Source of the DNA: a virus
Direction: 5' to 3' (one strand)
DNA: 21,915 nt
Virus record (IMG/VR): IMGVR_UViG_3300031877_000335
Span: 1 to 21,915 of that record
Shown here: positions 1 through 21,915 of the stretch, in pieces
How positions within the stretch are numbered: position 1 is the first letter of the stretch
Layout of the letters: each line of letters opens with the position of its first letter
Made by a program: the position numbers and the translations under genes
The notes under the pieces: model-generated
Databases searched by the model: none
What the model was told of the DNA's origin: nothing
What the model saw: only the letters and a program-made list of their open reading frames with translations

Positions 1-474
1 ATGGGAGAAAAGGAAACAAGAACTGGCTGGGAAGACTCAGTAATGGGAGAATTTGACTTTGAGAAGGGAGAGATTCTCACAAATCTCACGCTTCTGGAAG
101 ACCACGGAGACAAATTTCCATGTCCTTTCTGTATTGAAAAGCATCTCAGCAAGGTAATAGGGTATGCGGAGGAGGTTAGTTTGGGAGAAGACGATAAGGA
201 GATGAAGGAACTTGCGGAATGGGCTAGAGAATGGCGAAGGAAAATTCAAGGAGCAAAAGAACATTCGCATGACAACCCTAGAACAAGAGGGTTTTTGCCT
301 CATGGACTGACTGGACTGACTGAATGTGAGAAAGAGCATAGTGATATCCGTAGGAAGCTTGCGAAATGCATCAAAAAGGTTGAACTGAAATGTTGTGGTC
401 GTCATACAAAGGACTATTCCGCTTGTGAATGTAACCCCGTTGCAGTTTGCAGAGCTTCAATTCCGTGTCCTTAA
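1..474 (+). CDS. Cysteine-rich zinc-type protein of unknown function
   Basis: I do not recognise a specific family. The 157-residue protein has an N-terminal CPFCIEKH motif (C41, C44, H48) followed by a charged helical stretch to about residue 85, a linker, then a C-terminal Cys/His cluster (C109, H113, C123, C131, C132, H135, C142, C144, C150, C156). Two zinc sites are plausible. CxxCxxKHL motifs followed by an acidic helix occur in small phage and virus proteins of unknown role (recalled, not searched). The ATG is the first base of the window, so the true start could lie upstream; a second ATG at 43 is possible but has no clear ribosome site. It is the first visible gene of the + strand cluster and ends 98 bases before the first basic peptide, which suggests but does not prove membership of that operon. 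Confidence 0.6.
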   Translation: MGEKETRTGWEDSVMGEFDFEKGEILTNLTLLEDHGDKFPCPFCIEKHLSKVIGYAEEVSLGEDDKEMKELAEWAREWRRKIQGAKEHSHDNPRTRGFLPHGLTGLTECEKEHSDIRRKLAKCIKKVELKCCGRHTKDYSACECNPVAVCRASIPCP

Positions 475-572
475 GAATTCTACAATATTTTTTAGGTCGC
501 TGCAGCCTCTCTGTTAGACATCTTGATGCTTATTTTGATACCAACAGACATAGTATTCTTTTGGTCTCTGAA
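475..572 (+). promoter_or_regulatory. Short AT-rich gap with possible promoter
   Basis: This 98-base gap separates the zinc-type gene from the small basic peptides. It holds TATA-like stretches, ACAATATTTTTTAGG near 482-496 and TTATTTTGATAC near 531-542. Either could drive the capsid cluster. An open frame does run through it from 447 into the basic peptide, but the codons upstream of 573 look unlike the Arg-rich tail and have no ribosome site. Confidence 0.25.
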
Positions 573-644
573 ATGGGACGACGTAGATGCAAATATGGTA
601 GAACCATAAGTGGACCTTGCAGGAAAAGGAAAAGGAGACGTTAA
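573..644 (+). CDS. Tiny arginine-rich Cys-containing peptide (23 aa)
   Basis: The ATG at 573 opens a 23-residue frame starting MGRRRCKYGRT and ending GPCRKRKRRR before TAA at 642. Twelve of 23 residues are Arg or Lys, and two cysteines (C6, C16) bracket a Tyr-Gly-Arg loop. The composition is that of a protamine-like nucleic-acid condensing peptide; tailless icosahedral dsDNA viruses such as adenovirus carry very small basic core peptides. The frame stays open upstream to 447, so a longer 65-residue form is possible, but the upstream part is not basic and overlaps the previous gene. There is no strong ribosome site. The same frame resumes right after the stop in the next basic ORF. The role is inferred from composition only. 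Confidence 0.45.
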   Translation: MGRRRCKYGRTISGPCRKRKRRR

Positions 645-647
645 CTT

Positions 648-767
648 TTGGATAAATGCTTCCGTAATCCTCGAACTGGGGTTATGATGCGTAGAAAACC
701 TCATGGAAGAGGATTTGAACGGTGCAGAAAGAGAGGTAGAAGACATGGATATACTAGGAAATCTTGA
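648..767 (+). CDS. Small basic two-cysteine protein (39 aa)
   Basis: A TTG at 648 with GGAG at 634-637 (10-base spacing) opens a 39-residue frame ending at TGA 765-767; an ATG at 684 is an alternative. Fifteen of 39 residues are Arg or Lys. The core reads CFRNPRTGVMM, then nine residues later FERC, so two cysteines (C4, C26) bracket an NPxTG motif. That spacing recalls the 2-cysteine adaptor domain of large eukaryotic DNA viruses, but the similarity is short and may be chance. It lies in the same frame as the 23-residue peptide, separated only by TAA and one codon, and overlaps the next gene by 23 bases. A DNA-binding core or adaptor peptide is the likely class. Confidence 0.45.
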   Translation: MDKCFRNPRTGVMMRRKPHGRGFERCRKRGRRHGYTRKS

Positions 768-1206
768 CCCTGAAAAGCTTTTCAGAAAAGTTGAACAGAA
801 AGCTCCAGTCCTAGGAAACCTTTACGGTTTCTTTGGTCCGTTAGCCGCTACTGCTGGTAGTCAAGGAAGAACAGAAAACGCCTTAGACGCTATCATCAGA
901 GAACTTTTCGCACTGACTAACCCAAAAATGCCAACAATAGAAGGCATAATTTACTGGTGGAAAGACTGGGCAAGCGGAACAGCCAAAAACGGCATTGTTG
1001 CATGGCTGATAGGAGAAGTTCTAGGTAACTCAAGGATTTCAGACTTTGGCGTTAACACACTGAAAGGAACAGCGCTTGCCGCTTTAGTTGGAGAGATAGG
1101 GCAAGGCGGGGGTGCGCCCTACGGTCCTAACCCAGCCAACCCAGATTTCCCATTCTCAAATCCAAGAGGACCAACTCCTACGGGAGTTAACCCATATGAT
1201 AGGTGA
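745..1206 (+). CDS. Small hydrophobic virion-like protein with Pro-rich tail
   Basis: The 153-residue product starts MDILGNLDPEKLF. I chose the ATG at 745 because GAGGT at 733-737 lies 7 bases upstream; an in-frame ATG at 703 has no ribosome site and would overlap the basic ORF much further. The middle has two hydrophobic or amphipathic helices (about residues 78-92 and 102-118) rich in Gly and Ala, too short for confident membrane spans. The last 30 residues are an extended Asn/Pro-rich tail (PYGPNPANPDFPF). Small membrane-associated proteins are typical minor components of tailless viruses with an internal membrane. It is placed directly before the putative capsid gene, 6 bases apart. No family recognised. 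Confidence 0.6.
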   Translation: MDILGNLDPEKLFRKVEQKAPVLGNLYGFFGPLAATAGSQGRTENALDAIIRELFALTNPKMPTIEGIIYWWKDWASGTAKNGIVAWLIGEVLGNSRISDFGVNTLKGTALAALVGEIGQGGGAPYGPNPANPDFPFSNPRGPTPTGVNPYDR

Positions 1207-1212
1207 TAGTGA

Positions 1213-2019
1213 ATGCCAATAGGTTCAGACGTAGTAGGACCAACAGTACTGTCAGCCACTTCAGACGTTCAGTTAGGTGGAGCTTCATGGAAAGTTCCAG
1301 CAGGAGTAAAATCCATCCTTGCTGTCATTCCAGTAGTAAGCTCTCCGGGTGGACCCACAGCCGCACAGCCGATAGCCGCAAAGCTCACAGTTGAAAGCGA
1401 TGATGTTAAGGTTGCTCCTTTCATTGTTCCAGCACAGATAATCGGGTCAAGCTTAGGTCTGTCGGGTGTTCAGCCTTCTGGGAAGAGCATGCAATATCCC
1501 ATGAATTTATCCGTTAGCGGTGGCAACGAAATCAACTTCTATGGAACTGGACTTTTTGACCACACCATTGAACCGTATATGTCTGTAACAATCATCTACG
1601 CTGATTACGTAGTAACTCCACAATACCATGCGAAACTTGGAACCTTCACCAACACGGGAACTGCCGCCGCCGAGGCATCGGGAACCGCTTACAGCATAAG
1701 CGGCGCAAAAGCCATCAAGAAGGTCATAGGGTTAGTGGTTGGAACAACTGTAGCAACGACAAAGGGAATCATGGGCAAAATCAGAATGAAAAGTTCTGAT
1801 TTTAAGGTTCCATGGGAACTGAAATTTCATGTAGAGCCTTGTCATGGTGTCATAGCTACTAATGCAACGACAGCCTCAGCACAAGAAGCTACTGCGGGGG
1901 TTGTTCTGTTGGATGTTGATATACCCGTTGCGTCTCCATGCAATATTCAAGACTACTTTACATTGGCTGTTGCATTAACGACAACTGGCAATTTCCTGAC
2001 AGGTGTCATGTATGTGTAG
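1213..2019 (+). CDS. Putative double-jelly-roll major capsid protein
   Basis: This 268-residue protein is almost entirely beta-strand-like, with few charges and no signal peptide, as for an intracellularly assembled capsid protein. Two halves resemble each other: residues 55-67 (AAKLTVESDDVKV) match residues 187-199 (MGKIRMKSSDFKV), preceded in both by a GVKSILAVIP / AIKKVIGLVV strand and followed by hydrophobic strands. A tandem duplication of this size is what a double-jelly-roll capsid protein shows, and the length is close to PM2 P2 (about 269 residues). The start is supported by AGGTGAT at 1200-1206, seven bases before the ATG. It lies between a hydrophobic protein and two further beta proteins. 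A fibre or other virion protein is the main alternative. Confidence 0.55.
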   Translation: MPIGSDVVGPTVLSATSDVQLGGASWKVPAGVKSILAVIPVVSSPGGPTAAQPIAAKLTVESDDVKVAPFIVPAQIIGSSLGLSGVQPSGKSMQYPMNLSVSGGNEINFYGTGLFDHTIEPYMSVTIIYADYVVTPQYHAKLGTFTNTGTAAAEASGTAYSISGAKAIKKVIGLVVGTTVATTKGIMGKIRMKSSDFKVPWELKFHVEPCHGVIATNATTASAQEATAGVVLLDVDIPVASPCNIQDYFTLAVALTTTGNFLTGVMYV

Positions 2020-2038
2020 GTTCAACGACAGCCTACCC

Positions 2039-2068
2039 AAATTCACCGTTTTAGGGGTGAATTTTTTT
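2039..2068 (+). promoter_or_regulatory. Hairpin with T-run that buries a ribosome site
   Basis: AAATTCACC (2039-2047) and GGTGAATTT (2056-2064) form a perfect 9-bp stem around an 8-base loop, and a run of seven T (2062-2068) follows. The right arm contains most of GGGGTGA (2054-2060), the ribosome site of the TTG start at 2067. The element can therefore act as a terminator after the capsid gene, as a translational damper for the next gene, or both. Seen directly; its function is inferred. Confidence 0.6.
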
Positions 2069-2474
2069 GTCTTCTGAAAGGTCTGAAATTCTGAATCTCA
2101 GAGATTTCATTTACAAGTTTCTGGGCAAGAAGCTCTATGAGTTGACTCTCAGAGGTGACTATGTTCCTCAAACTGGGGCTGATGTCATCAAGATGTTGGA
2201 GGTTCCGTTCTGTCATAGACTTGTGCGGGTGGAAGTCAAGCATACTGATGGGAGTGACGTGGATTCTACGGCGGCGTTTACATGGTCTTTGTCAAGACGG
2301 ACAACAAAGAATCTGTATTCAAAGATTGTGGGGTATTCTGCCTCTGTTGTCACTGATTTTGTGGAAGCTTTCGGTGAAACCTATGAGTATCCTAACATGG
2401 AATACAAGTTAGTGACCAACACAACCAATGGACATAGAATCTATTTGAAAATGACTATTCAACTGTTGGATTGA
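2067..2474 (+). CDS. Beta-rich protein, possible minor capsid protein
   Basis: A 135-residue product from a TTG start. GGGGTGA at 2054-2060 lies six bases upstream and decides this start, since no ATG fits. A helical N-terminus (about residues 1-45, RDFIYKFLGKKLYEL) leads into alternating beta strands (VRVEVKHTDG, AFTWSLS, YKLVTN, IYLKMTIQLLD). No cysteine motif, signal peptide or membrane helix is present. The strand-rich second half and its place after the putative major capsid gene suggest a minor capsid, spike or penton protein. Translation is probably limited by the hairpin over its ribosome site. No family recognised. Confidence 0.6.
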   Translation: MSSERSEILNLRDFIYKFLGKKLYELTLRGDYVPQTGADVIKMLEVPFCHRLVRVEVKHTDGSDVDSTAAFTWSLSRRTTKNLYSKIVGYSASVVTDFVEAFGETYEYPNMEYKLVTNTTNGHRIYLKMTIQLLD

Positions 2475-2478
2475 GAAC

Positions 2479-3003
2479 ATGAGAGAAAGCCTCTTAGACG
2501 GACTAAAAGTTTTGAATGACCGTTTACTTTATCTTAGTCCTTTGTATTGGTTAACAACCTTCATCAACACCGCCACTAGCCACAATCTATACGTTCCCCA
2601 TGGAACTGCTCCCACAACAAAAGACATAGTTCCAGTAGGGGAATGTTGGATGGTAGAGGGAATACATTGTTTAGGGAGCAATTCAACCTTTAACGGACCT
2701 GTAAACATAAATCACAACATTTGTTATCTCATGAATGTTAATAGTCGGTTCAGGCAAGGCGCACAAGCAACGGGTGAACCTAATGAAACAAACTCAGACG
2801 CTTTTGTCCATCGGTCTAGTCTAATTCAGGTTAGCACGTCGCCAAGTGCGCATTGGTTACATGACTTGGCTAGTAGTCTTTATCATCAAAATCCCGTGCT
2901 GACCATGCATGAGAGGGACAGTATTCTCTTTGAATTGACGGGGTTAACTGTTGGGAACGTGGAGATTCTACAAGTGGTAGGAAAGAAGTTTAAGGTGATT
3001 TGA
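2479..3003 (+). CDS. Beta-rich protein, possible vertex or penton protein
   Basis: The 174-residue product follows the previous gene by four bases, so the two are probably cotranslated. The N-terminal 35 residues are helical and hydrophobic (LLYLSPLYWLTTFIN). The rest alternates beta strands and turns (VPVGECWMVEGIHCL, PVNINHNICYLMNV, SILFELTGLTVGNVEIL), a pattern fitting a single jelly-roll. Pairs of short beta-barrel proteins beside a capsid gene are common for vertex proteins in tailless viruses. The ribosome site is weak (GGATTGAG). I cannot assign a family; its role is inferred from context. Confidence 0.6.
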   Translation: MRESLLDGLKVLNDRLLYLSPLYWLTTFINTATSHNLYVPHGTAPTTKDIVPVGECWMVEGIHCLGSNSTFNGPVNINHNICYLMNVNSRFRQGAQATGEPNETNSDAFVHRSSLIQVSTSPSAHWLHDLASSLYHQNPVLTMHERDSILFELTGLTVGNVEILQVVGKKFKVI

Positions 3004-3228
3004 TTGAAGTTGGACCTTGACCCTAGTCTTCAGCGTGTCATAGCCACAGGGATCCTGCTTTTCCTTGAAGTATTGCTGGGAAATATTATCGTGCAACTTC
3101 AGACGGGAAACTATCCTAGCCCCATTCAAGCTTTAACAATTTTGTGTGTTTCGGCTCTTTCTATAGTTACCTACTTGTTAACTTTCTTGCGTAAGGAAGA
3201 GGAAAAGGAGACTGAAGACAGTGGGTGA
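3004..3228 (+). CDS. Small two-helix membrane protein
   Basis: A 74-residue protein with two predicted membrane helices (about residues 12-31 and 42-62), a short loop with Pro residues (GNYPSPIQ), and a strongly charged C-terminal tail (RKEEEKETEDSG). This matches the outline of a class II holin, but a viral internal-membrane protein fits equally well given the putative tailless-virus neighbours. The TTG start directly follows the TGA stop of the previous gene and is preceded by AGGTGAT at 2993-2999; a second in-frame TTG at 3010 has better spacing. It overlaps the next gene by 8 bases. Confidence 0.6.
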   Translation: MKLDLDPSLQRVIATGILLFLEVLLGNIIVQLQTGNYPSPIQALTILCVSALSIVTYLLTFLRKEEEKETEDSG

Positions 3229-3757
3229 CAACCCAAGGATTTTGACGGAATGGTTATCTACTAATCCTCAGATGAATGAGGACGTTAAGAAAACTATAGT
3301 TAAGCAAACAACGGTCATAGCTAGACCCATTATGAGTTCCAACATTTTTGACCTTTCAACGGTTCCAGACAACATCATGTTTTGGTTGGTCTTACTTCAG
3401 TTGGGAAAGAGAAATCCCGCTAGTGTGGAAAGGCTTTTGAAGACTCTTTTTCAAGCTTGCGGAGACGCATTAGAAGCATATTGCAGAGCTGGAGCTGGCA
3501 ACCGTATTACTGCATGGGGAAGTGGAGTATTGACAAGCATCTTTATGGAAAGGTTCGGACTGTTGACTCACGCACAGACTACGGGCTTTCATTTAGGGTT
3601 GAACATCATAGCGGGTGCGGAAATCACTGAAGAAATAGCGGCTGAAATAATGAGTATCTTCCCGTGGAATTTTGCGAACAAGGACCTAGATTTCCCAACA
3701 ACCCTTGTTCTAGGAGACAAAAGCAGAACCTTCAAGGTTACGAGAGGAGTCAAGTAG
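3221..3757 (+). CDS. Helical protein of unknown function
   Basis: A 178-residue protein, mainly alpha-helical, with no recognised motif. The GTG start overlaps the stop of the preceding gene by 8 bases and has GGAG at 3206-3209 upstream, so it is translationally coupled. The middle contains a helix pair (SVERLLKTLFQACGDALEAYCRAG) and a hydrophobic glycine-containing segment (about residues 118-133, TTGFHLGLNIIAG) too polar for a clear membrane span. It is the last gene of the + strand cluster. Its 3' end overlaps a small - strand ORF by 8 bases, so the two transcription units converge here. Confidence 0.6.
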   Translation: MGDNPRILTEWLSTNPQMNEDVKKTIVKQTTVIARPIMSSNIFDLSTVPDNIMFWLVLLQLGKRNPASVERLLKTLFQACGDALEAYCRAGAGNRITAWGSGVLTSIFMERFGLLTHAQTTGFHLGLNIIAGAEITEEIAAEIMSIFPWNFANKDLDFPTTLVLGDKSRTFKVTRGVK

Positions 3758-3893
3758 TTTCTTCACTGTCTTCCTTTTCGTCTTCCATGATGTCCTTAAC
3801 TGTGTCTTTAATTTCCTTCCCTACGGTCCTAACTGGTTTGAAGGCAAAAGCTACAAGCTTTCCGTAGAGTCCTTTCTTCTTTTTGTCTTTCAT
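3750..3893 (-). CDS. Small charged protein (47 aa), probably leaderless
   Basis: The ATG at 3893 (reading leftward) opens a 47-residue frame starting MKDKKKKGLYGKLVAFAFKP and ending in an acidic tail (EDEKEDSEETT). The N-terminus is very basic, the centre is an amphipathic helix, and the tail is acidic. It has no ribosome site, but a TATA-like CCCTTAAAAG lies about 30 bases upstream, fitting a nearly leaderless archaeal transcript. It converges with the + strand cluster, overlapping the last gene by 8 bases. Function unknown; a small regulatory, membrane-associated or DNA-binding protein is possible. Shortness keeps confidence moderate. Confidence 0.45.
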   Translation of the reverse strand: MKDKKKKGLYGKLVAFAFKPVRTVGKEIKDTVKDIMEDEKEDSEETT

Positions 3894-4291
3894 AGGAGAA
3901 AGGAATAGTTAGGGAGACTTTTAAGGGTTCTTGATATCAAAGAAAAAAGTGATAGTTTCGGACAAATTTTGTTCAAAAGTTGTCTGTTAACATCAATTTG
4001 ATTTTGTTAACAAATTTTCTGCTCATCCATATGGAAAATCCATATCGTTAACAAAATTGACACCAACATCATATGCCAAAAAAAAGAACTGTTAACATTA
4101 TGATAACTTGACAAAAGAAGCTCAAAAAAAGCCTGATTTGTTAACAAATTCTCCTCCCCCGCAAAGTGTTAGGTTAAATGTTAGCTTCTAACTAACAATT
4201 TCCATAGTTTTGTGTCTAAAAGCACTTTCTAGATGGAATTAAGCATAATCACGGTAAACATATCAAATGTAAACACTTAATGAAAGGATAT
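3894..4291. repeat. AT-rich noncoding region with GTTAAC palindrome array
   Basis: About 400 bases without a convincing gene between two converging arms. GTTAAC occurs at 3986-3991, 4006-4011, 4047-4052, 4091-4096 and 4140-4145. Two copies sit in longer perfect palindromes: TTTGTTAACAAA at 4003-4014 and ATTTGTTAACAAAT at 4136-4149. Flanking them are TGTTAG at 4167-4172 and 4179-4184 with inverted CTAACA at 4192-4197, a CCATATGG palindrome near 4027, a CATATGG/CCATATC pair around 4030-4046, and GTAAACA repeated at 4254-4260 and 4269-4275. Such clustered palindromes in AT-rich DNA suit a replication origin or a repressor array. GTTAAC also occurs inside genes of the left arm, so the hexamer alone is not specific. 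Confidence 0.5.
3917..3927 (-). promoter_or_regulatory. TATA-like box for the 47-residue protein
   Basis: On the - strand this reads CCCTTAAAAGT. Its centre lies about 30 bases before the ATG at 3893, so transcription would start within a few bases of the ATG. This fits the absence of a ribosome site there. Sequence pattern only. Confidence 0.35.
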
Positions 4292-5737
4292 CTAAGATTG
4301 ATGTTTCTTCCAAAACAGGTAAACTTTTGTTTGGGTTAGGAAGACAAGAATACGAAGCATTTTAGCCAATTTTTCAAGACTCGCCGTATCCACAAGGGCT
4401 TCAAATTCTTTTGTGGTCAGAAATGCTTGGCGAACACCCATGATGCGTTTTCGATAGATGCTTCCCGAAATCTCTTTGAAATCCCTCTTAATCCCCTTTA
4501 TGTCTTCAGTCGACATCCCCCACAGTTTTTCTAGATTTGTTCTTTCTGAGGTGAGGAAGATCGGATTGAAGTGTAAGGCTCTCAATTTCTCAACAGCCCT
4601 TAATATTTCCGGGTGAGGCTTGGTTTCCGCAATTTTCGTCATGCCAGCCTTCTCGAAAAACGGGTTGTACTTCGCCATAACCGCTAAGGTCTCAACGTAA
4701 GGCTTACCAGCTAAAGGAAGGGTTTCTGCCACAATTTTCACGCCCAACCCGATAGTGCGGTATTTGGGATGAACAACAACCCTGGAAATTCGGGTTAAGG
4801 TGCGGTTGATTTCCTGAATTGACAAGTTTCTTCCAAAGGCTTTGCGTCTCCCAGACACCGCAATGGGAGGAGAACCGTAAACGATTACGCCGGCGGTTTC
4901 TTCGCCCCTTTTCAAAACAAAAATCTTTTGGTGGGCAAAGAGGCGTGAATCTCTATAGTGAAAGCCAGCTAACTTTTCATAGTCCTCCTTCGTTCCTTCC
5001 TCCACGTGCATTTCCTTGACAAGACTGCATTCTCTGTTGATTTCGTTCGGAAAGTAACGAACCTCTATTTCTCTTCCGAACCGCTTGTGGATGTGAACCG
5101 ACGGCTTCAGATCTTGAAAGAGGTCGGTGTGGGTGGTAGCTGCAAAAACAGCTTTCCCCTCCTCCCTCGCAATTTTCTGAAGGTTGAAGCCCACGATTTT
5201 GGCTGTGTCCCGGTCTAGCGTGGAGCAAAACTCGTCTGCAAACCAATACTGCCTATCGGCTTCAATCATCTTAGCTAGTTTATATCGATATTTCTGTCCG
5301 TCGCTGAGTTGATTGTAGCGCCGTATAAAAAGGAAGGCGTCGTTTAAACCAACCCTAGAAAGGAGGCTTAAACTCTCATCGAAGGTTTTTCCAACAGTGT
5401 CGATAAGAGGCTTCGTCTCTTCAACTTCAACATCGTTAATATTAATTGTTTCCGAGCCAAGGTCTTTTTCCAGCGTCCTCAACAAAACGCTTTTTCCGCT
5501 TCCACTGTCCCCGGTGATGTAGACTATGTCGTTGGGCGCAATCTTCAACTCCACGTTGTCGTAGATCACGTGTTCTTGAAAATCGTCTACGCCAAGGCCG
5601 AAGGCCTCAGCAACCTTAACCGTGCGGTCTGTGATGTCTGTTCTAGTTTTGTAGGCAATGTTAATCCTGAAAACGCCTGCCTTCCGATCATATTTTTTCG
5701 TTATTCTAGTGATCTTAAAGAGTTCGCGGATTCCCAT
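4292..5737 (-). CDS. ABC-type ATPase fused to GNAT acetyltransferase
   Basis: A 481-residue two-domain protein. Residues 1-240 form an ABC ATPase: Walker A GDSGSGKS (76-83), signature LSDGQ (144-148), Walker B YWFADE (164-169) and H-loop histidine H203. There are no membrane spans and no transporter partner, so it is a soluble ABC protein. Residues about 240-385 form a GNAT fold with the acetyl-CoA loop RVVVHPKYRTIGLG (319-332) and the NPFFEKAGM motif (358-366). The C-terminal 100 residues are helical and unassigned. It starts one base after the large terminase stop, at the end of the long - strand operon. The substrate is unknown; modification of a packaging, host or RNA target is conceivable but unsupported. 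Confidence 0.85.
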   Translation of the reverse strand: MGIRELFKITRITKKYDRKAGVFRINIAYKTRTDITDRTVKVAEAFGLGVDDFQEHVIYDNVELKIAPNDIVYITGDSGSGKSVLLRTLEKDLGSETININDVEVEETKPLIDTVGKTFDESLSLLSRVGLNDAFLFIRRYNQLSDGQKYRYKLAKMIEADRQYWFADEFCSTLDRDTAKIVGFNLQKIAREEGKAVFAATTHTDLFQDLKPSVHIHKRFGREIEVRYFPNEINRECSLVKEMHVEEGTKEDYEKLAGFHYRDSRLFAHQKIFVLKRGEETAGVIVYGSPPIAVSGRRKAFGRNLSIQEINRTLTRISRVVVHPKYRTIGLGVKIVAETLPLAGKPYVETLAVMAKYNPFFEKAGMTKIAETKPHPEILRAVEKLRALHFNPIFLTSERTNLEKLWGMSTEDIKGIKRDFKEISGSIYRKRIMGVRQAFLTTKEFEALVDTASLEKLAKMLRILVFLTQTKVYLFWKKHQS

Positions 5738-12115: not shown

Positions 12116-13090
12116 TTACGTAATCATAACATTTTCAAACAACCATGTTTTGACCGTGAACTCTGTGCGCCAGAGAAACGGTTTAACGCGCACTTCATCC
12201 TCGTCTCGATAGGAAACTATGTCCACGTAGGTGATTCCTTCAACCGTTACAAGGCAGCGGGAATAGTCGCAGTAGATGGCGGCTGGAGAAACGCCGTCGC
12301 TTGGGTTGGTGGTTCTCGCAAGCAGATACACATAGCCATCAGCGTCGACGAAGTCGGTTAGGGAAGAAGTCAACATTACAATGATTTCTTCATCGCTTCC
12401 GCCCGTTCCAGTTTGGGGGTTTTGCCAAGCAGAAGCGTTAGAGTTCCAAACTTTCACCGTGACACCGTTTCCAGCAGGCGCTGTTCCGTAGCCCTCAAAC
12501 TTCAGGACAATTTCCTTAACGGTTTTCTCGTCGGATTCAATCTTAACACGGAACAAGAGGAGAGAGTATTTGCCATTCTCAGACTGAGAATAGCTGAAAC
12601 GTTGGTCGTCGCTGCGCCAAATCTTTTCATGATCTGCCGCCGACAACTCTGTCCAGTCTGGCGCATCCGGAGTTAGCTCAGAAGCAGATTTTGCGTAGTA
12701 GGCCTTGTGAGTTCCAGTGAGAGGTCCAACTCCAACATAATCATAGATGGTTTCGTTGGGTTTCGTTCTTTTCTCCCGAAGGACTCGGTTGACTTCCTGC
12801 CTAAGTTTATTTCGCATCTCCTTACCTGTGACGCCGGGCTTGTCAATTACCCAAATGTTGACGCGGGCGTATCCAACTCGTCTACGCATTGTTGCCGACA
12901 GCCCAATTTTTTGGTCTTCGCTGTGGTCGAGACCCACTGTCACCTGCCCATCGTAGTTTTTGAGGAGTTCTCGGTCGTACCATTCTGTGCTGACGTAGAT
13001 TTTGGCTAGGGAGCCGTCGTCCTTCACAACTTGGAGGTTTTTATCCAGAAGGCGGACGAGGGTTGTGACAGGGTCTTCTATTTCGGTCAT
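12116..13090 (-). CDS. Tail terminator-like protein with inserted beta domain
   Basis: A 324-residue protein directly before the tail tube, where tail terminator or completion proteins lie. Residues 1-120 have the terminator-like layout: a helix (DPVTTLVRLLDKNLQ), strands including GYARVNIWVIDKPG, and a helix EMRNKLRQEVNRVLREKR. Residues about 122-287 form a separate beta-sandwich (IVLKFEGYGTAP, GVTVKVWNSNASAWQNP, YVYLLARTT, RCLVTVEG), and the final strand FLWRTEFTVKTWLF resumes the first domain. The ATG at 13090 overlaps the previous stop (TAATG) with GGAGG 11 bases upstream; that site overlaps a GTG at 13111 that would add 7 residues, so I prefer 13090. It should cap the tail and bind the head. 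Confidence 0.65.
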   Translation of the reverse strand: MTEIEDPVTTLVRLLDKNLQVVKDDGSLAKIYVSTEWYDRELLKNYDGQVTVGLDHSEDQKIGLSATMRRRVGYARVNIWVIDKPGVTGKEMRNKLRQEVNRVLREKRTKPNETIYDYVGVGPLTGTHKAYYAKSASELTPDAPDWTELSAADHEKIWRSDDQRFSYSQSENGKYSLLLFRVKIESDEKTVKEIVLKFEGYGTAPAGNGVTVKVWNSNASAWQNPQTGTGGSDEEIIVMLTSSLTDFVDADGYVYLLARTTNPSDGVSPAAIYCDYSRCLVTVEGITYVDIVSYRDEDEVRVKPFLWRTEFTVKTWLFENVMIT

Positions 13091-14499
13091 TAGCCAAGAA
13101 GCCTCCTGCACACGGCTCTTCGATACATGAGTTGCCCTTGAAAATCAAACTCCTCGACTGGTCCAACTTCATAGTCGACACCTTTTCGTCGGATTTTATC
13201 ACGGTGACGGATGGGCGCAAAAACATGAACTGTGATGTAGTCGTTGACGATGTATCCTGGCTCCATGACAATTTCGTCTGGTCTGGCGAGGCTGACTAGG
13301 GCTTTGATGGTTACGCCTTCTCCGTAGGAGATTGATTCCTCGGCTTGCCTCACGGGATAGAGGGTTAGGTCTTCGCCATGGGACCTCAGGATTCTGGTGA
13401 AAGGCGTTATTGGTGGACTATAGTTTAGGAAGAGGAGGGAAAGCCAAGCAACCGTCACTGTAGCCTTCTTGTTTTCAACGGCGCTGTAGTCATCAAATTT
13501 GACGCCCCAGAACATGAAATCCTCTTGATGAGAGTTTGTTATGTTGAAGCTGAATTCTAGGGCTGACTTGTCGTGGCCAGTTCTAATCTGCCACAAAATC
13601 CCCGCTGTTACGGCGTCGTAGTATTCGCAGTCAACCTTTCTGGAAACCACATCAACGTAGCCCGACCAGCAGACGGCGGAGTTGTAGGCTGGGTAGTCTG
13701 CACTCGGACCAATCGTGTTGATGAACTCGTAGACTTTCTTAACCGTCAAACTCCAGCCCTCATGGTGGAAAAGGCCGTTTAGGGCGTAGCCGAAATCGTC
13801 GTCGTAGATGGTGTTTGATGTGCCTACTTTGAGCCATTCTCCGTCTCCGTTTGGGGGAGGAGCATAGCGACTGTAAAGTTCCTCGAAGCCGCTTCTATAG
13901 AAGTTAACAGCGTCGTCAATCATGGTTTGGTATTTTGTTTCGCTGGTGCGTTCATAGAGCATTTTCAAGGCTATTAAGCCGTATAGGTCGATGACATGCA
14001 TTTCTGGGAGCCAAGCGCCTGCCAAGGTGACTGCCTGGGCAAAACCGCCATAGTACTTGTCGTGTTGCCCTAGCTGGCTTGGTTTTTGTTGCATGTTGTA
14101 GAGGAAAGTTCCTCCAGCCAGTTTAGCGGCGTCGAGGTAGGCTTGGGTGCCAGCTAAGTCGTAGGCTTTTAGGAGGGCTGGAACTGCTCGCATGGCATCT
14201 ATGCTATAGTAGTAGCTGCTGCCGTCCTTGCTTTGGAATCCTCCATACGCCAGCTTTGTGTCGTCTGTGCATTGGATAGAAAGCAAATAGTTGGCTAGGG
14301 CTACGATCTTGTTGTAGATGTTCGTTTTTTCGCTTTCAAACTGCCCATCAAAGTATGCTTGGTATAGGAAGTCGATGGCGTGGGCGGCTGGAGCTGAACC
14401 CCTACCCCACTCTGTGTCGACGCCTGTTCCGGGGATGTAGTAGAAGTAGGGTGCGTAGTCCATGATGAAGTTGAAGTAGGCTTGAGGAACCGTTCCCAT
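13090..14499 (-). CDS. Head-closure protein fused to an alpha/alpha toroid domain
   Basis: A 469-residue two-part protein. Residues about 5-360 show repeated helix pairs with aromatic Gly-rich turns (LAYGGFQSKDGSSYYYSIDAM, YYGGFAQAV, EMHVIDLYGLIALKMLYE), the look of an alpha/alpha toroid as in glycan epimerases, unsaturated glucuronyl hydrolases and related enzymes. Residues about 366-469 form a small beta domain (GVTIKALVSLARPDEI, YITVHVFAP, HRDKIRRKGVDYEVGPVEEF) resembling phage head-closure proteins, with the typical strand around an Arg-Lys-Gly-x-x-Tyr-x-Val. It lies between the head-tail connector and the tail terminator, exactly the head-closure slot. No catalytic residues can be named. 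GAGG lies nine bases before the ATG. Confidence 0.6.
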   Translation of the reverse strand: MGTVPQAYFNFIMDYAPYFYYIPGTGVDTEWGRGSAPAAHAIDFLYQAYFDGQFESEKTNIYNKIVALANYLLSIQCTDDTKLAYGGFQSKDGSSYYYSIDAMRAVPALLKAYDLAGTQAYLDAAKLAGGTFLYNMQQKPSQLGQHDKYYGGFAQAVTLAGAWLPEMHVIDLYGLIALKMLYERTSETKYQTMIDDAVNFYRSGFEELYSRYAPPPNGDGEWLKVGTSNTIYDDDFGYALNGLFHHEGWSLTVKKVYEFINTIGPSADYPAYNSAVCWSGYVDVVSRKVDCEYYDAVTAGILWQIRTGHDKSALEFSFNITNSHQEDFMFWGVKFDDYSAVENKKATVTVAWLSLLFLNYSPPITPFTRILRSHGEDLTLYPVRQAEESISYGEGVTIKALVSLARPDEIVMEPGYIVNDYITVHVFAPIRHRDKIRRKGVDYEVGPVEEFDFQGQLMYRRAVCRRLLG

Positions 14500-15079: not shown

Positions 15080-15379
15080 TTATTGTGCCATTCTTATCAT
15101 TCTGTAGTAATCATACACACCATACGTCAATAAACTTAACCCAAGAAACCAACTGATGTGATGCAATAGTTCATAGATTTCTGTTTCGCCGGTTATGGCA
15201 CCAACTATACTCATTAATGAGCCGATCAGTAGGAATATACTAGATAAAAGAACTGGAGACCAGAAGGACCTTCTTATTTTCTTAACTCGAAACTCTATGA
15301 TGGTGTTTAAGCTAAAAAAGACTAGAAGCAAGGAAATGAAGACACACGCGATGTCAGTTATCAGCTCTACTGGATGCAT
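15080..15379 (-). CDS. Small three-helix membrane protein
   Basis: From ATG 15379 the 99-residue protein has three membrane helices (about residues 6-28, 41-62, 70-90), a basic loop between the first two (RVKKIRR) and a short polar end. I chose this start because AGGAG lies six bases upstream; an in-frame ATG at 15433 has no ribosome site and would only add 18 polar residues. It is flanked by AT-rich gaps (14869-15079 and 15380-15467) and is itself more AT-rich than the viral genes around it, so it may be a recent insertion. Function unknown; superinfection exclusion or a host-derived sensor fragment are possible. Confidence 0.6.
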   Translation of the reverse strand: MHPVELITDIACVFISLLLVFFSLNTIIEFRVKKIRRSFWSPVLLSSIFLLIGSLMSIVGAITGETEIYELLHHISWFLGLSLLTYGVYDYYRMIRMAQ

Positions 15380-15467
15380 GCTAAACTCCTTTTGAACTGA
15401 GAGGGGATGATGATTAAAAAAGTTATTAATCATTCAGACTTAGATTTCGAGTAACACAAGGAAGCCT

Positions 15468-16650: not shown

Positions 16651-17208
16651 TCACCGAACTAAATGATCCCACGTTATCCTAACAATCCACATTTCCACGA
16701 GTTCGCCAGTAGTGTAATTTTTAACAGACACTGGCTCCATAAGTTTTAGTTGTTCCGGGAAAATTCTACGCATCCAGTCATAAAATTTCCCCGCAACCCT
16801 GAATTCTCCAACTCCACCTTTCCCGAACTTGTTAGCCATTCCTACAACGAGTTCCTCAAAATATCTGTGGTCGTCATTTTCATAGTCCTTGTTATCTACT
16901 GTGCAGTAGGCCCAATGGAGAATTCTGCTGTATTCTGGATTGTCAGGAATTTCCTTGAAGCGAATGAAAATTACTGCGCGCACATTTTCCTTTTCATCTT
17001 CGGCGCAGAATAGATGGAACCCCTTTATTGGAGCTTCATCGGAGCCGAAATCAATTCCTTCCGTAACAACTTTCATGGCGTATTCAGGTGTCAGCTCCTT
17101 CAATACAGGATTCATGCATAGCCTTGGGAAACTCAGTTCCGGCTGGCTTTTAATGAAGTTAACGGCCTTTTTGAAGTCTTCATAGTTTTTTGCTTCATAG
17201 AATACCAT
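16651..17208 (-). CDS. Unknown protein with GNAT-like strand pattern
   Basis: A 185-residue protein of mixed alpha/beta type. The order helix (YEDFKKAVNFIKSQ), strands (GFHLFCAEDEKENVRAVIFIRFKE, ILHWAYCTVDNKD), helix (RYFEELVVGMANKFG), strand (GEFRVAG) and helix (FYDWMRRIFPEQLKLM) weakly recalls an acetyltransferase fold, but the acetyl-CoA binding loop is not recognisable. GGAGG overlaps the end of the upstream gene and lies six bases before the ATG, so translation is coupled. Its place between two likely fibre or surface proteins suggests a fibre-related or virion-modifying role, which is inference. Confidence 0.6.
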   Translation of the reverse strand: MVFYEAKNYEDFKKAVNFIKSQPELSFPRLCMNPVLKELTPEYAMKVVTEGIDFGSDEAPIKGFHLFCAEDEKENVRAVIFIRFKEIPDNPEYSRILHWAYCTVDNKDYENDDHRYFEELVVGMANKFGKGGVGEFRVAGKFYDWMRRIFPEQLKLMEPVSVKNYTTGELVEMWIVRITWDHLVR

Positions 17209-20661: not shown

Positions 20662-21915
20662 TTAGGTTGCGTTTTGGTTTCGCCTCTTCAACAACTCCTT
20701 TATGGTTATTGCAGTAATTTCCAAATTGTCATGCAATTTTGCTCTCGCAATTTCTTCCCAAGCTCCACTACCAAAACTGAAAGCCACTATATACCCTTTT
20801 GTTGCCTTTTTGCGTCTCATTGCAGTTTCAAAATTGTCAATGACATTTCTTCCGATGTCATCAGATTGCTTAACTTGAATAGGATACCCTTCTAAGCTAA
20901 ACCCATCAATTCCCATATCAGAGGTTTTACGAGCTGAAACTCTACCAAATAACCTTTGAACTACCCAATTCTGAAACTCAAAAGGTGGAAGTTTTCTAAG
21001 CTCTTCTTCAGACAGAGGCATACCCATAACATTAGGTGACACATTTAGCTTTCGCATTCTACTTTCCATAAGGTTGCATGCTGTTGGTGAAACATCTATA
21101 CCAATCCATCTTCGACCGAGTTTGTGTGCGACAACTATTGCTGTTCCACAGCCACAAAAAGGATCGAGAACAATATCCATTACATCAGAAGATGCCGAGA
21201 TAATTCTATGTAATAGCTTTTCGGGTTTTTGTGTAGGATAACCTAACTTCTCTTTACCCAGAGGATAGCCTCCAACATCATCCCAAACGTCATTGGCTTT
21301 TGTTCCCTTTTCAATATCAATGTAGGTTTTCAATCCTACCTTACTCTTCTTTTCCCAATCAGCCAATTTTCTTCGTCCAGTTCTTGCACCTCTAGTATAA
21401 TACCAACCTTTTTCATCACGCTTGAGACTTTTAAGTAGCTTTTCCGAATATGGTCTGTGCTGAGAGTGAAATTTTACGCGATTGGTTTTGCCATAAAAAA
21501 GAAGGGTTTCATGAGCTTTGGGAAATGTTGGTGCATTATCCGCTCTCCTACCTAAAACCCAAATTATCTCGCGAATAAAATTCTCACTACCAAATATCTC
21601 ATCCATCATCACCTTAAGATAAGCCCCTGCATGCCAATCACAATGAAGATACATAGAACCAGATGGTTTCAAAACTCTATAGCATTGTTCAACCCTTTCT
21701 TTCATCCATAAAATATAATTGTTAATCCCCCCTTTCCATCTATCTTCAAAAGCCCTCTTTTCTGCTCCATCATGCCAAATAATCTCATACTGCTGATTTG
21801 AAAAGAAGGGTGGATCAGCATAGATCAAATCTACACAATCATTTGGAAATTTAGCTAAAACATCCTTACAATCACCACAATAAATTGTGTTAGTGCTGAA
21901 ATAAGAGATGGACAT
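20662..21915 (-). CDS. DNA methyltransferase fused to Mrr-like nuclease domain
   Basis: The 417-residue protein begins at the window edge. Residues 1-290 are an N4/N6 methyltransferase of beta order: catalytic DPPF (34-37) comes first, then the YPTQKPEKLLHRII element (226-239), then the S-adenosylmethionine motif DPFCGCGT (251-258). Residues about 310-410 look like an Mrr-type PD-(D/E)XK nuclease: FEFQNWVV, MGIDGF (D337), IQVKQ (Q347, K349), GRNVIDNFETAMRR and GYIVAFSFGSGAWEE. This would put modification and restriction in one chain, or make a methyl-directed nuclease. The bases before its ATG are outside the window. It probably protects viral DNA or attacks competitors. Confidence 0.85.
   Translation of the reverse strand: MSISYFSTNTIYCGDCKDVLAKFPNDCVDLIYADPPFFSNQQYEIIWHDGAEKRAFEDRWKGGINNYILWMKERVEQCYRVLKPSGSMYLHCDWHAGAYLKVMMDEIFGSENFIREIIWVLGRRADNAPTFPKAHETLLFYGKTNRVKFHSQHRPYSEKLLKSLKRDEKGWYYTRGARTGRRKLADWEKKSKVGLKTYIDIEKGTKANDVWDDVGGYPLGKEKLGYPTQKPEKLLHRIISASSDVMDIVLDPFCGCGTAIVVAHKLGRRWIGIDVSPTACNLMESRMRKLNVSPNVMGMPLSEEELRKLPPFEFQNWVVQRLFGRVSARKTSDMGIDGFSLEGYPIQVKQSDDIGRNVIDNFETAMRRKKATKGYIVAFSFGSGAWEEIARAKLHDNLEITAITIKELLKRRNQNAT

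What the first reader, a model, noticed from the sequence alone, without database searches (positions are those of the whole stretch)
1213..2019. Internal duplication suggests a compact double-jelly-roll capsid protein
Two halves of the 268-residue protein share a strand and motif pattern: AAKLTVESDDVKV (55-67) against MGKIRMKSSDFKV (187-199), each preceded by a GVKSILAVIP / AIKKVIGLVV strand. Tandem jelly-rolls of this total size define double-jelly-roll capsid proteins, and this would be among the smallest, possibly from an undescribed archaeal lineage.
Basis: partly seen in the sequence, partly recalled or inferred. Interest (0 to 1): 0.78.

Follow-up and report, generated by a model that had tools for sequence, protein, structure and literature searches.

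The report
Orphan two-domain protein beside tailed virus
A protein built of two weakly similar halves belongs to a small gene set that looks like a virus-particle cassette sitting next to an ordinary tailed archaeal virus; whether it is a double-jelly-roll capsid protein could not be shown here.

Summary
The ORF, coordinates and quoted motifs are exact, and the two halves resemble each other modestly (shuffle P 0.004-0.008). The window is mainly a head-tailed virus with its own HK97-type capsid protein, terminase, tail tube and neck protein, all on the minus strand, so the 268-aa protein is not that virus's major capsid protein. It lies in a plus-strand cassette (about 570-3757) that none of the tailed-virus relatives fetched carries. 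One full-length homologue was found (34% identity, E 2.3e-30), in a Bathyarchaeota MAG, behind the same Arg-rich Cys peptide (MGRRRCKYGRT.. / MARRRGCKYGRT..) and a 125-aa counterpart of the window's 153-aa protein. That conserved trio fits a virion structural cassette, with a layout like FLiP and PM2 (small basic or membrane protein, then a capsid protein of about 270-310 aa). The fold is undetermined: the one usable model had pLDDT 30. I rate a double-jelly-roll capsid at about one in three.

The parts
573..644 (+). 23-aa Arg/Lys-rich peptide MGRRRCKYGRTISGPCRKRKRRR, likely nucleic-acid binding
   Evidence: Matches MARRRGCKYGRTSRGRCRKKR upstream of the homologue in L018; no shuffle of 5000 reached the score; motif found in 1 of 257 Bathyarchaeia-class genomes, G014 C107 only
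648..767 (+). possible second basic peptide (39 aa, TTG start, two Cys); overlaps the next gene, uncertain
   Evidence: open frame, 38% K+R; no homologue
745..1206 (+). 153-aa protein, Gly/Pro-rich C-terminus
   Evidence: 27% identity to L018 174-551, E 0.002; same place in both cassettes
1213..2019 (+). 268-aa tandem two-domain protein (the finding)
2067..2474 (+). 135-aa orphan, beta-rich by composition
   Evidence: no homologue
2479..3003 (+). 174-aa orphan, beta-rich by composition
   Evidence: no homologue
3004..3228 (+). 74-aa membrane protein
   Evidence: hydropathy maximum 2.41 over 19 residues
3221..3757 (+). 178-aa orphan, last gene of the cassette
   Evidence: no convincing homologue
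3984..4147 (.). five TGTTAACA palindromes in 164 bases between cassette and tailed-virus block
   Evidence: 17 one-mismatch matches in the window against 7.1 expected, 10 of them here

Best explanation
The protein is a virion component made of two tandem beta-sandwich-like domains, encoded in a particle cassette (Arg-rich peptide, small protein, tandem protein, further beta-rich proteins, membrane protein) of an element distinct from the head-tailed virus in the same record. Most likely it forms the outer shell of a small tailless particle, with the Arg-rich peptide neutralising DNA. Shown: cassette conservation with one relative, absence from tailed relatives, internal similarity. Inferred: beta fold, shell role, DNA binding, tailless particle.
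For: Full-length homologue with conserved upstream peptide and small protein. All minus-strand genes from 4292 to about 20604 recur in tailed relatives in varying subsets (with a few exceptions such as 15080-15433 and 16651-17208), whereas no plus-strand gene does. In Bathyarchaeota contigs L015 and L016 the terminase end of the tailed block runs into genes that look cellular by reading. Layout parallels FLiP, where an Arg-rich 84-aa structural protein precedes a 311-aa capsid protein, and PM2, where a 34-aa structural protein precedes a 269-aa one. The Odin group of double-jelly-roll viruses also has a small protein before the capsid gene and no packaging ATPase (PMC5894146).
Against: No fold evidence. 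No sequence similarity to known capsid proteins by HHalign (E 0.14 to 0.54). No packaging ATPase in the cassette as seen. Codon usage does not set the cassette apart (distance 5.50, null 95% 6.20). The window ends at base 1, so the cassette's neighbours are missing. Only two family members are known.
Confidence: 0.38

Rival explanations
1. The cassette belongs to the head-tailed virus as a variable adsorption or decoration module, and the tandem protein is a surface or receptor-binding protein with two beta domains.
For: Same record; codon usage not distinguishable; W-x-VPA-GV sequence recalls phage surface and fibre domains (own knowledge, not tested); in L018 the gene is followed by a 96-aa protein matching phrog_30212, E 8e-6, and a 363-aa protein that by reading resembles a beta-helix spike.
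Against: No cassette gene in any fetched tailed relative; Arg-rich peptides and a membrane protein are unusual in an adsorption module; transcribed convergently to the structural block.
Confidence: 0.34
2. The contig joins two unrelated sequences by misassembly, or the cassette is host DNA next to a provirus trimmed at gene boundaries.
For: Both window ends fall exactly on start codons, as trimming at gene boundaries would give; tailed block ends next to cellular-looking genes in L015 and L016.
Against: The cassette recurs in a Bathyarchaeota MAG on a 2.9-kb contig with the same gene order; orphan content is unlike housekeeping genes.
Confidence: 0.2

Closest known systems
FLiP (Finnlakeviridae) capsid cassette
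   Same: Arg-rich small structural protein directly before the capsid gene; no packaging ATPase reported; small structural protein genes after it
   Different: No sequence similarity; FLiP capsid protein is 311 aa and shows no internal repeat by the same test; FLiP's Arg-rich protein also has a membrane segment
PM2 (Corticoviridae) P7-P2-P3-P4-P8 block
   Same: capsid protein of 269 aa after a tiny structural protein, small structural proteins after it
   Different: No sequence similarity; PM2 P7 is a hydrophobic peptide, not Arg-rich; PM2 has P9 (its packaging ATPase, own knowledge) upstream
Odin group double-jelly-roll viruses (PMC5894146)
   Same: small protein before the capsid gene, no packaging ATPase, archaeal and sediment setting, a further single-jelly-roll protein
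Head-tailed Bathyarchaeia viruses
   Same: the rest of this record: terminase, HK97-type capsid protein, tail tube, neck protein
   Different: none of the relatives fetched carries the cassette

Membership tests
double-jelly-roll major capsid proteins | two stacked eight-strand jelly-rolls | tested here: inconclusive
   single-sequence model pLDDT 29.9; no other usable model
double-jelly-roll major capsid proteins | sequence or profile match to a known member | tested here: not met
   no Pfam, PHROG or PDB match; HHalign to PM2, FLiP, STIV E 0.14-0.54. Known members often share no detectable sequence similarity (PMC8812541), so this is weak
double-jelly-roll major capsid proteins | trimeric pseudohexagonal capsomer | not testable with these tools
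   needs expression or cryo-EM
double-jelly-roll viruses | FtsK-HerA packaging ATPase near the capsid gene (absent in Odin and FLiP groups) | tested here: not met
   no Walker A match in other cassette proteins; the one in the 268-aa protein is a bare pattern match; upstream genes lie outside the window
HK97-type head-tailed virus (the rest of the window) | terminase, HK97 capsid protein, tail tube | tested here: met

The most novel reading that the evidence does not exclude
A double-jelly-roll capsid protein as small as PM2 P2, with an Arg-rich packaging peptide and no ATPase, from a tailless virus or satellite of Bathyarchaeia lodged beside a head-tailed provirus. A survey of Bathyarchaeia viruses reports head-tailed, filamentous and spindle-shaped types, and its main text does not contain the words jelly, icosahedral or tailless (PMC10848311).
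Probability: 0.33. Interest if true: 0.7.

Novelty: new member of a known kind. Interest (0 to 1): 0.42.

Why it matters
If the shell reading is right, it would add a tailless virus type to Bathyarchaeia, abundant sediment archaea whose surveyed viruses are of other types, and would give a case where the two barrels still show sequence similarity, which bears on how double jelly-rolls arose.

Tried and rejected
All eight viral scans (three with the tandem protein, its alignment or its homologue, two with neighbouring genes, two with DNA patterns, one with the terminase) gave no second homologue of the tandem protein; pattern hits L029, L031 and L032 are unrelated proteins. Both genome-contig scans, phage and plasmid records, 44 genomes of the L017 class and 398 of the phylum gave none either. 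Weak hits L019-L028 were judged chance after reading the six aligned from the profile search. Pairwise comparison of cassette proteins with PM2, FLiP and STIV proteins: three of 207 tests beat all 200 shuffles, about one expected by chance, not taken as evidence. Codon usage did not separate cassette from tailed block. No tRNA in the window. Structure: P0001 alone failed. The tool accepted it. I did not collect that model and nothing here rests on it; it also spent the last prediction job.

Full report
What is there. The window is a 21,915-base virus record. Both ends fall exactly on start codons, which would fit trimming at gene boundaries; that is inference. From 4292 to about 20604 the minus strand carries a head-tailed virus: terminase large subunit, tail protein, neck protein, tail tube, HK97-type capsid protein and a head decoration or scaffolding match. 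Terminase relatives were found in 13 viral contigs and three archaeal genome contigs, two of them Bathyarchaeota.

The finding. The halves align with shuffle P 0.004-0.008. With the homologue included, N- and C-half profiles align in the same register with E 0.023, but the homologue's own halves do not reach significance. I take a tandem duplication as likely, not proven. By the same test, FLiP and STIV capsid proteins show no repeat and PM2 P2 a marginal one, so a repeat does not by itself point to a double jelly-roll.

The cassette. In a table of 33 window genes against 20 loci, no plus-strand gene of 1-3757 has a counterpart in the tailed-virus relatives, while most minus-strand genes do. 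The only hit is the tandem protein in L018, a 2,893-base contig of a Bathyarchaeota MAG that also holds a terminase relative on another contig. There the order is Arg-rich peptide, 125-aa protein, 276-aa tandem protein, 96-aa protein, 363-aa protein. The peptide match is strong, the small-protein match moderate (27%, E 0.002), the tandem match clear (34%, E 2.3e-30).

What it most likely does. An Arg-rich peptide, a small protein and a beta-rich tandem protein conserved together, with more beta-rich proteins and a membrane protein beside them, look most like a particle cassette. FLiP and PM2 have comparable layouts, and Odin-group viruses lack an ATPase and have a small protein before the capsid gene. 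I put about 0.38 on a shell protein of a separate small element, 0.34 on a surface protein of the tailed virus, and 0.2 on misassembly or host DNA.

What could not be settled. The fold. The single-sequence prediction failed. A second prediction used an alignment containing the L018 protein.

Noticed in passing
window 3984-4147: Five TGTTAACA palindromes in 164 bases between two convergent gene blocks, possibly regulator binding sites.
   Followed up: partly
window 3750-3893, minus strand: Open frame of 47 aa (MKDKKKKGLYGKLVAFAFKPVRTVGKEIKDTVKDIMEDEKEDSEETT) beside the palindromes.
   Followed up: no
window 4292-5737, minus strand: 481-aa protein with an ABC-type ATPase part and a weak GNAT acetyltransferase match, beside the terminase gene in many tailed relatives.
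   Followed up: partly
window 20662-21915, minus strand: DNA methylase fused to an Mrr-type restriction endonuclease domain.
   Followed up: no
window 13090-14499, minus strand: 469-aa protein with a weak glycosyl hydrolase 76 match, conserved in tailed relatives.
   Followed up: no
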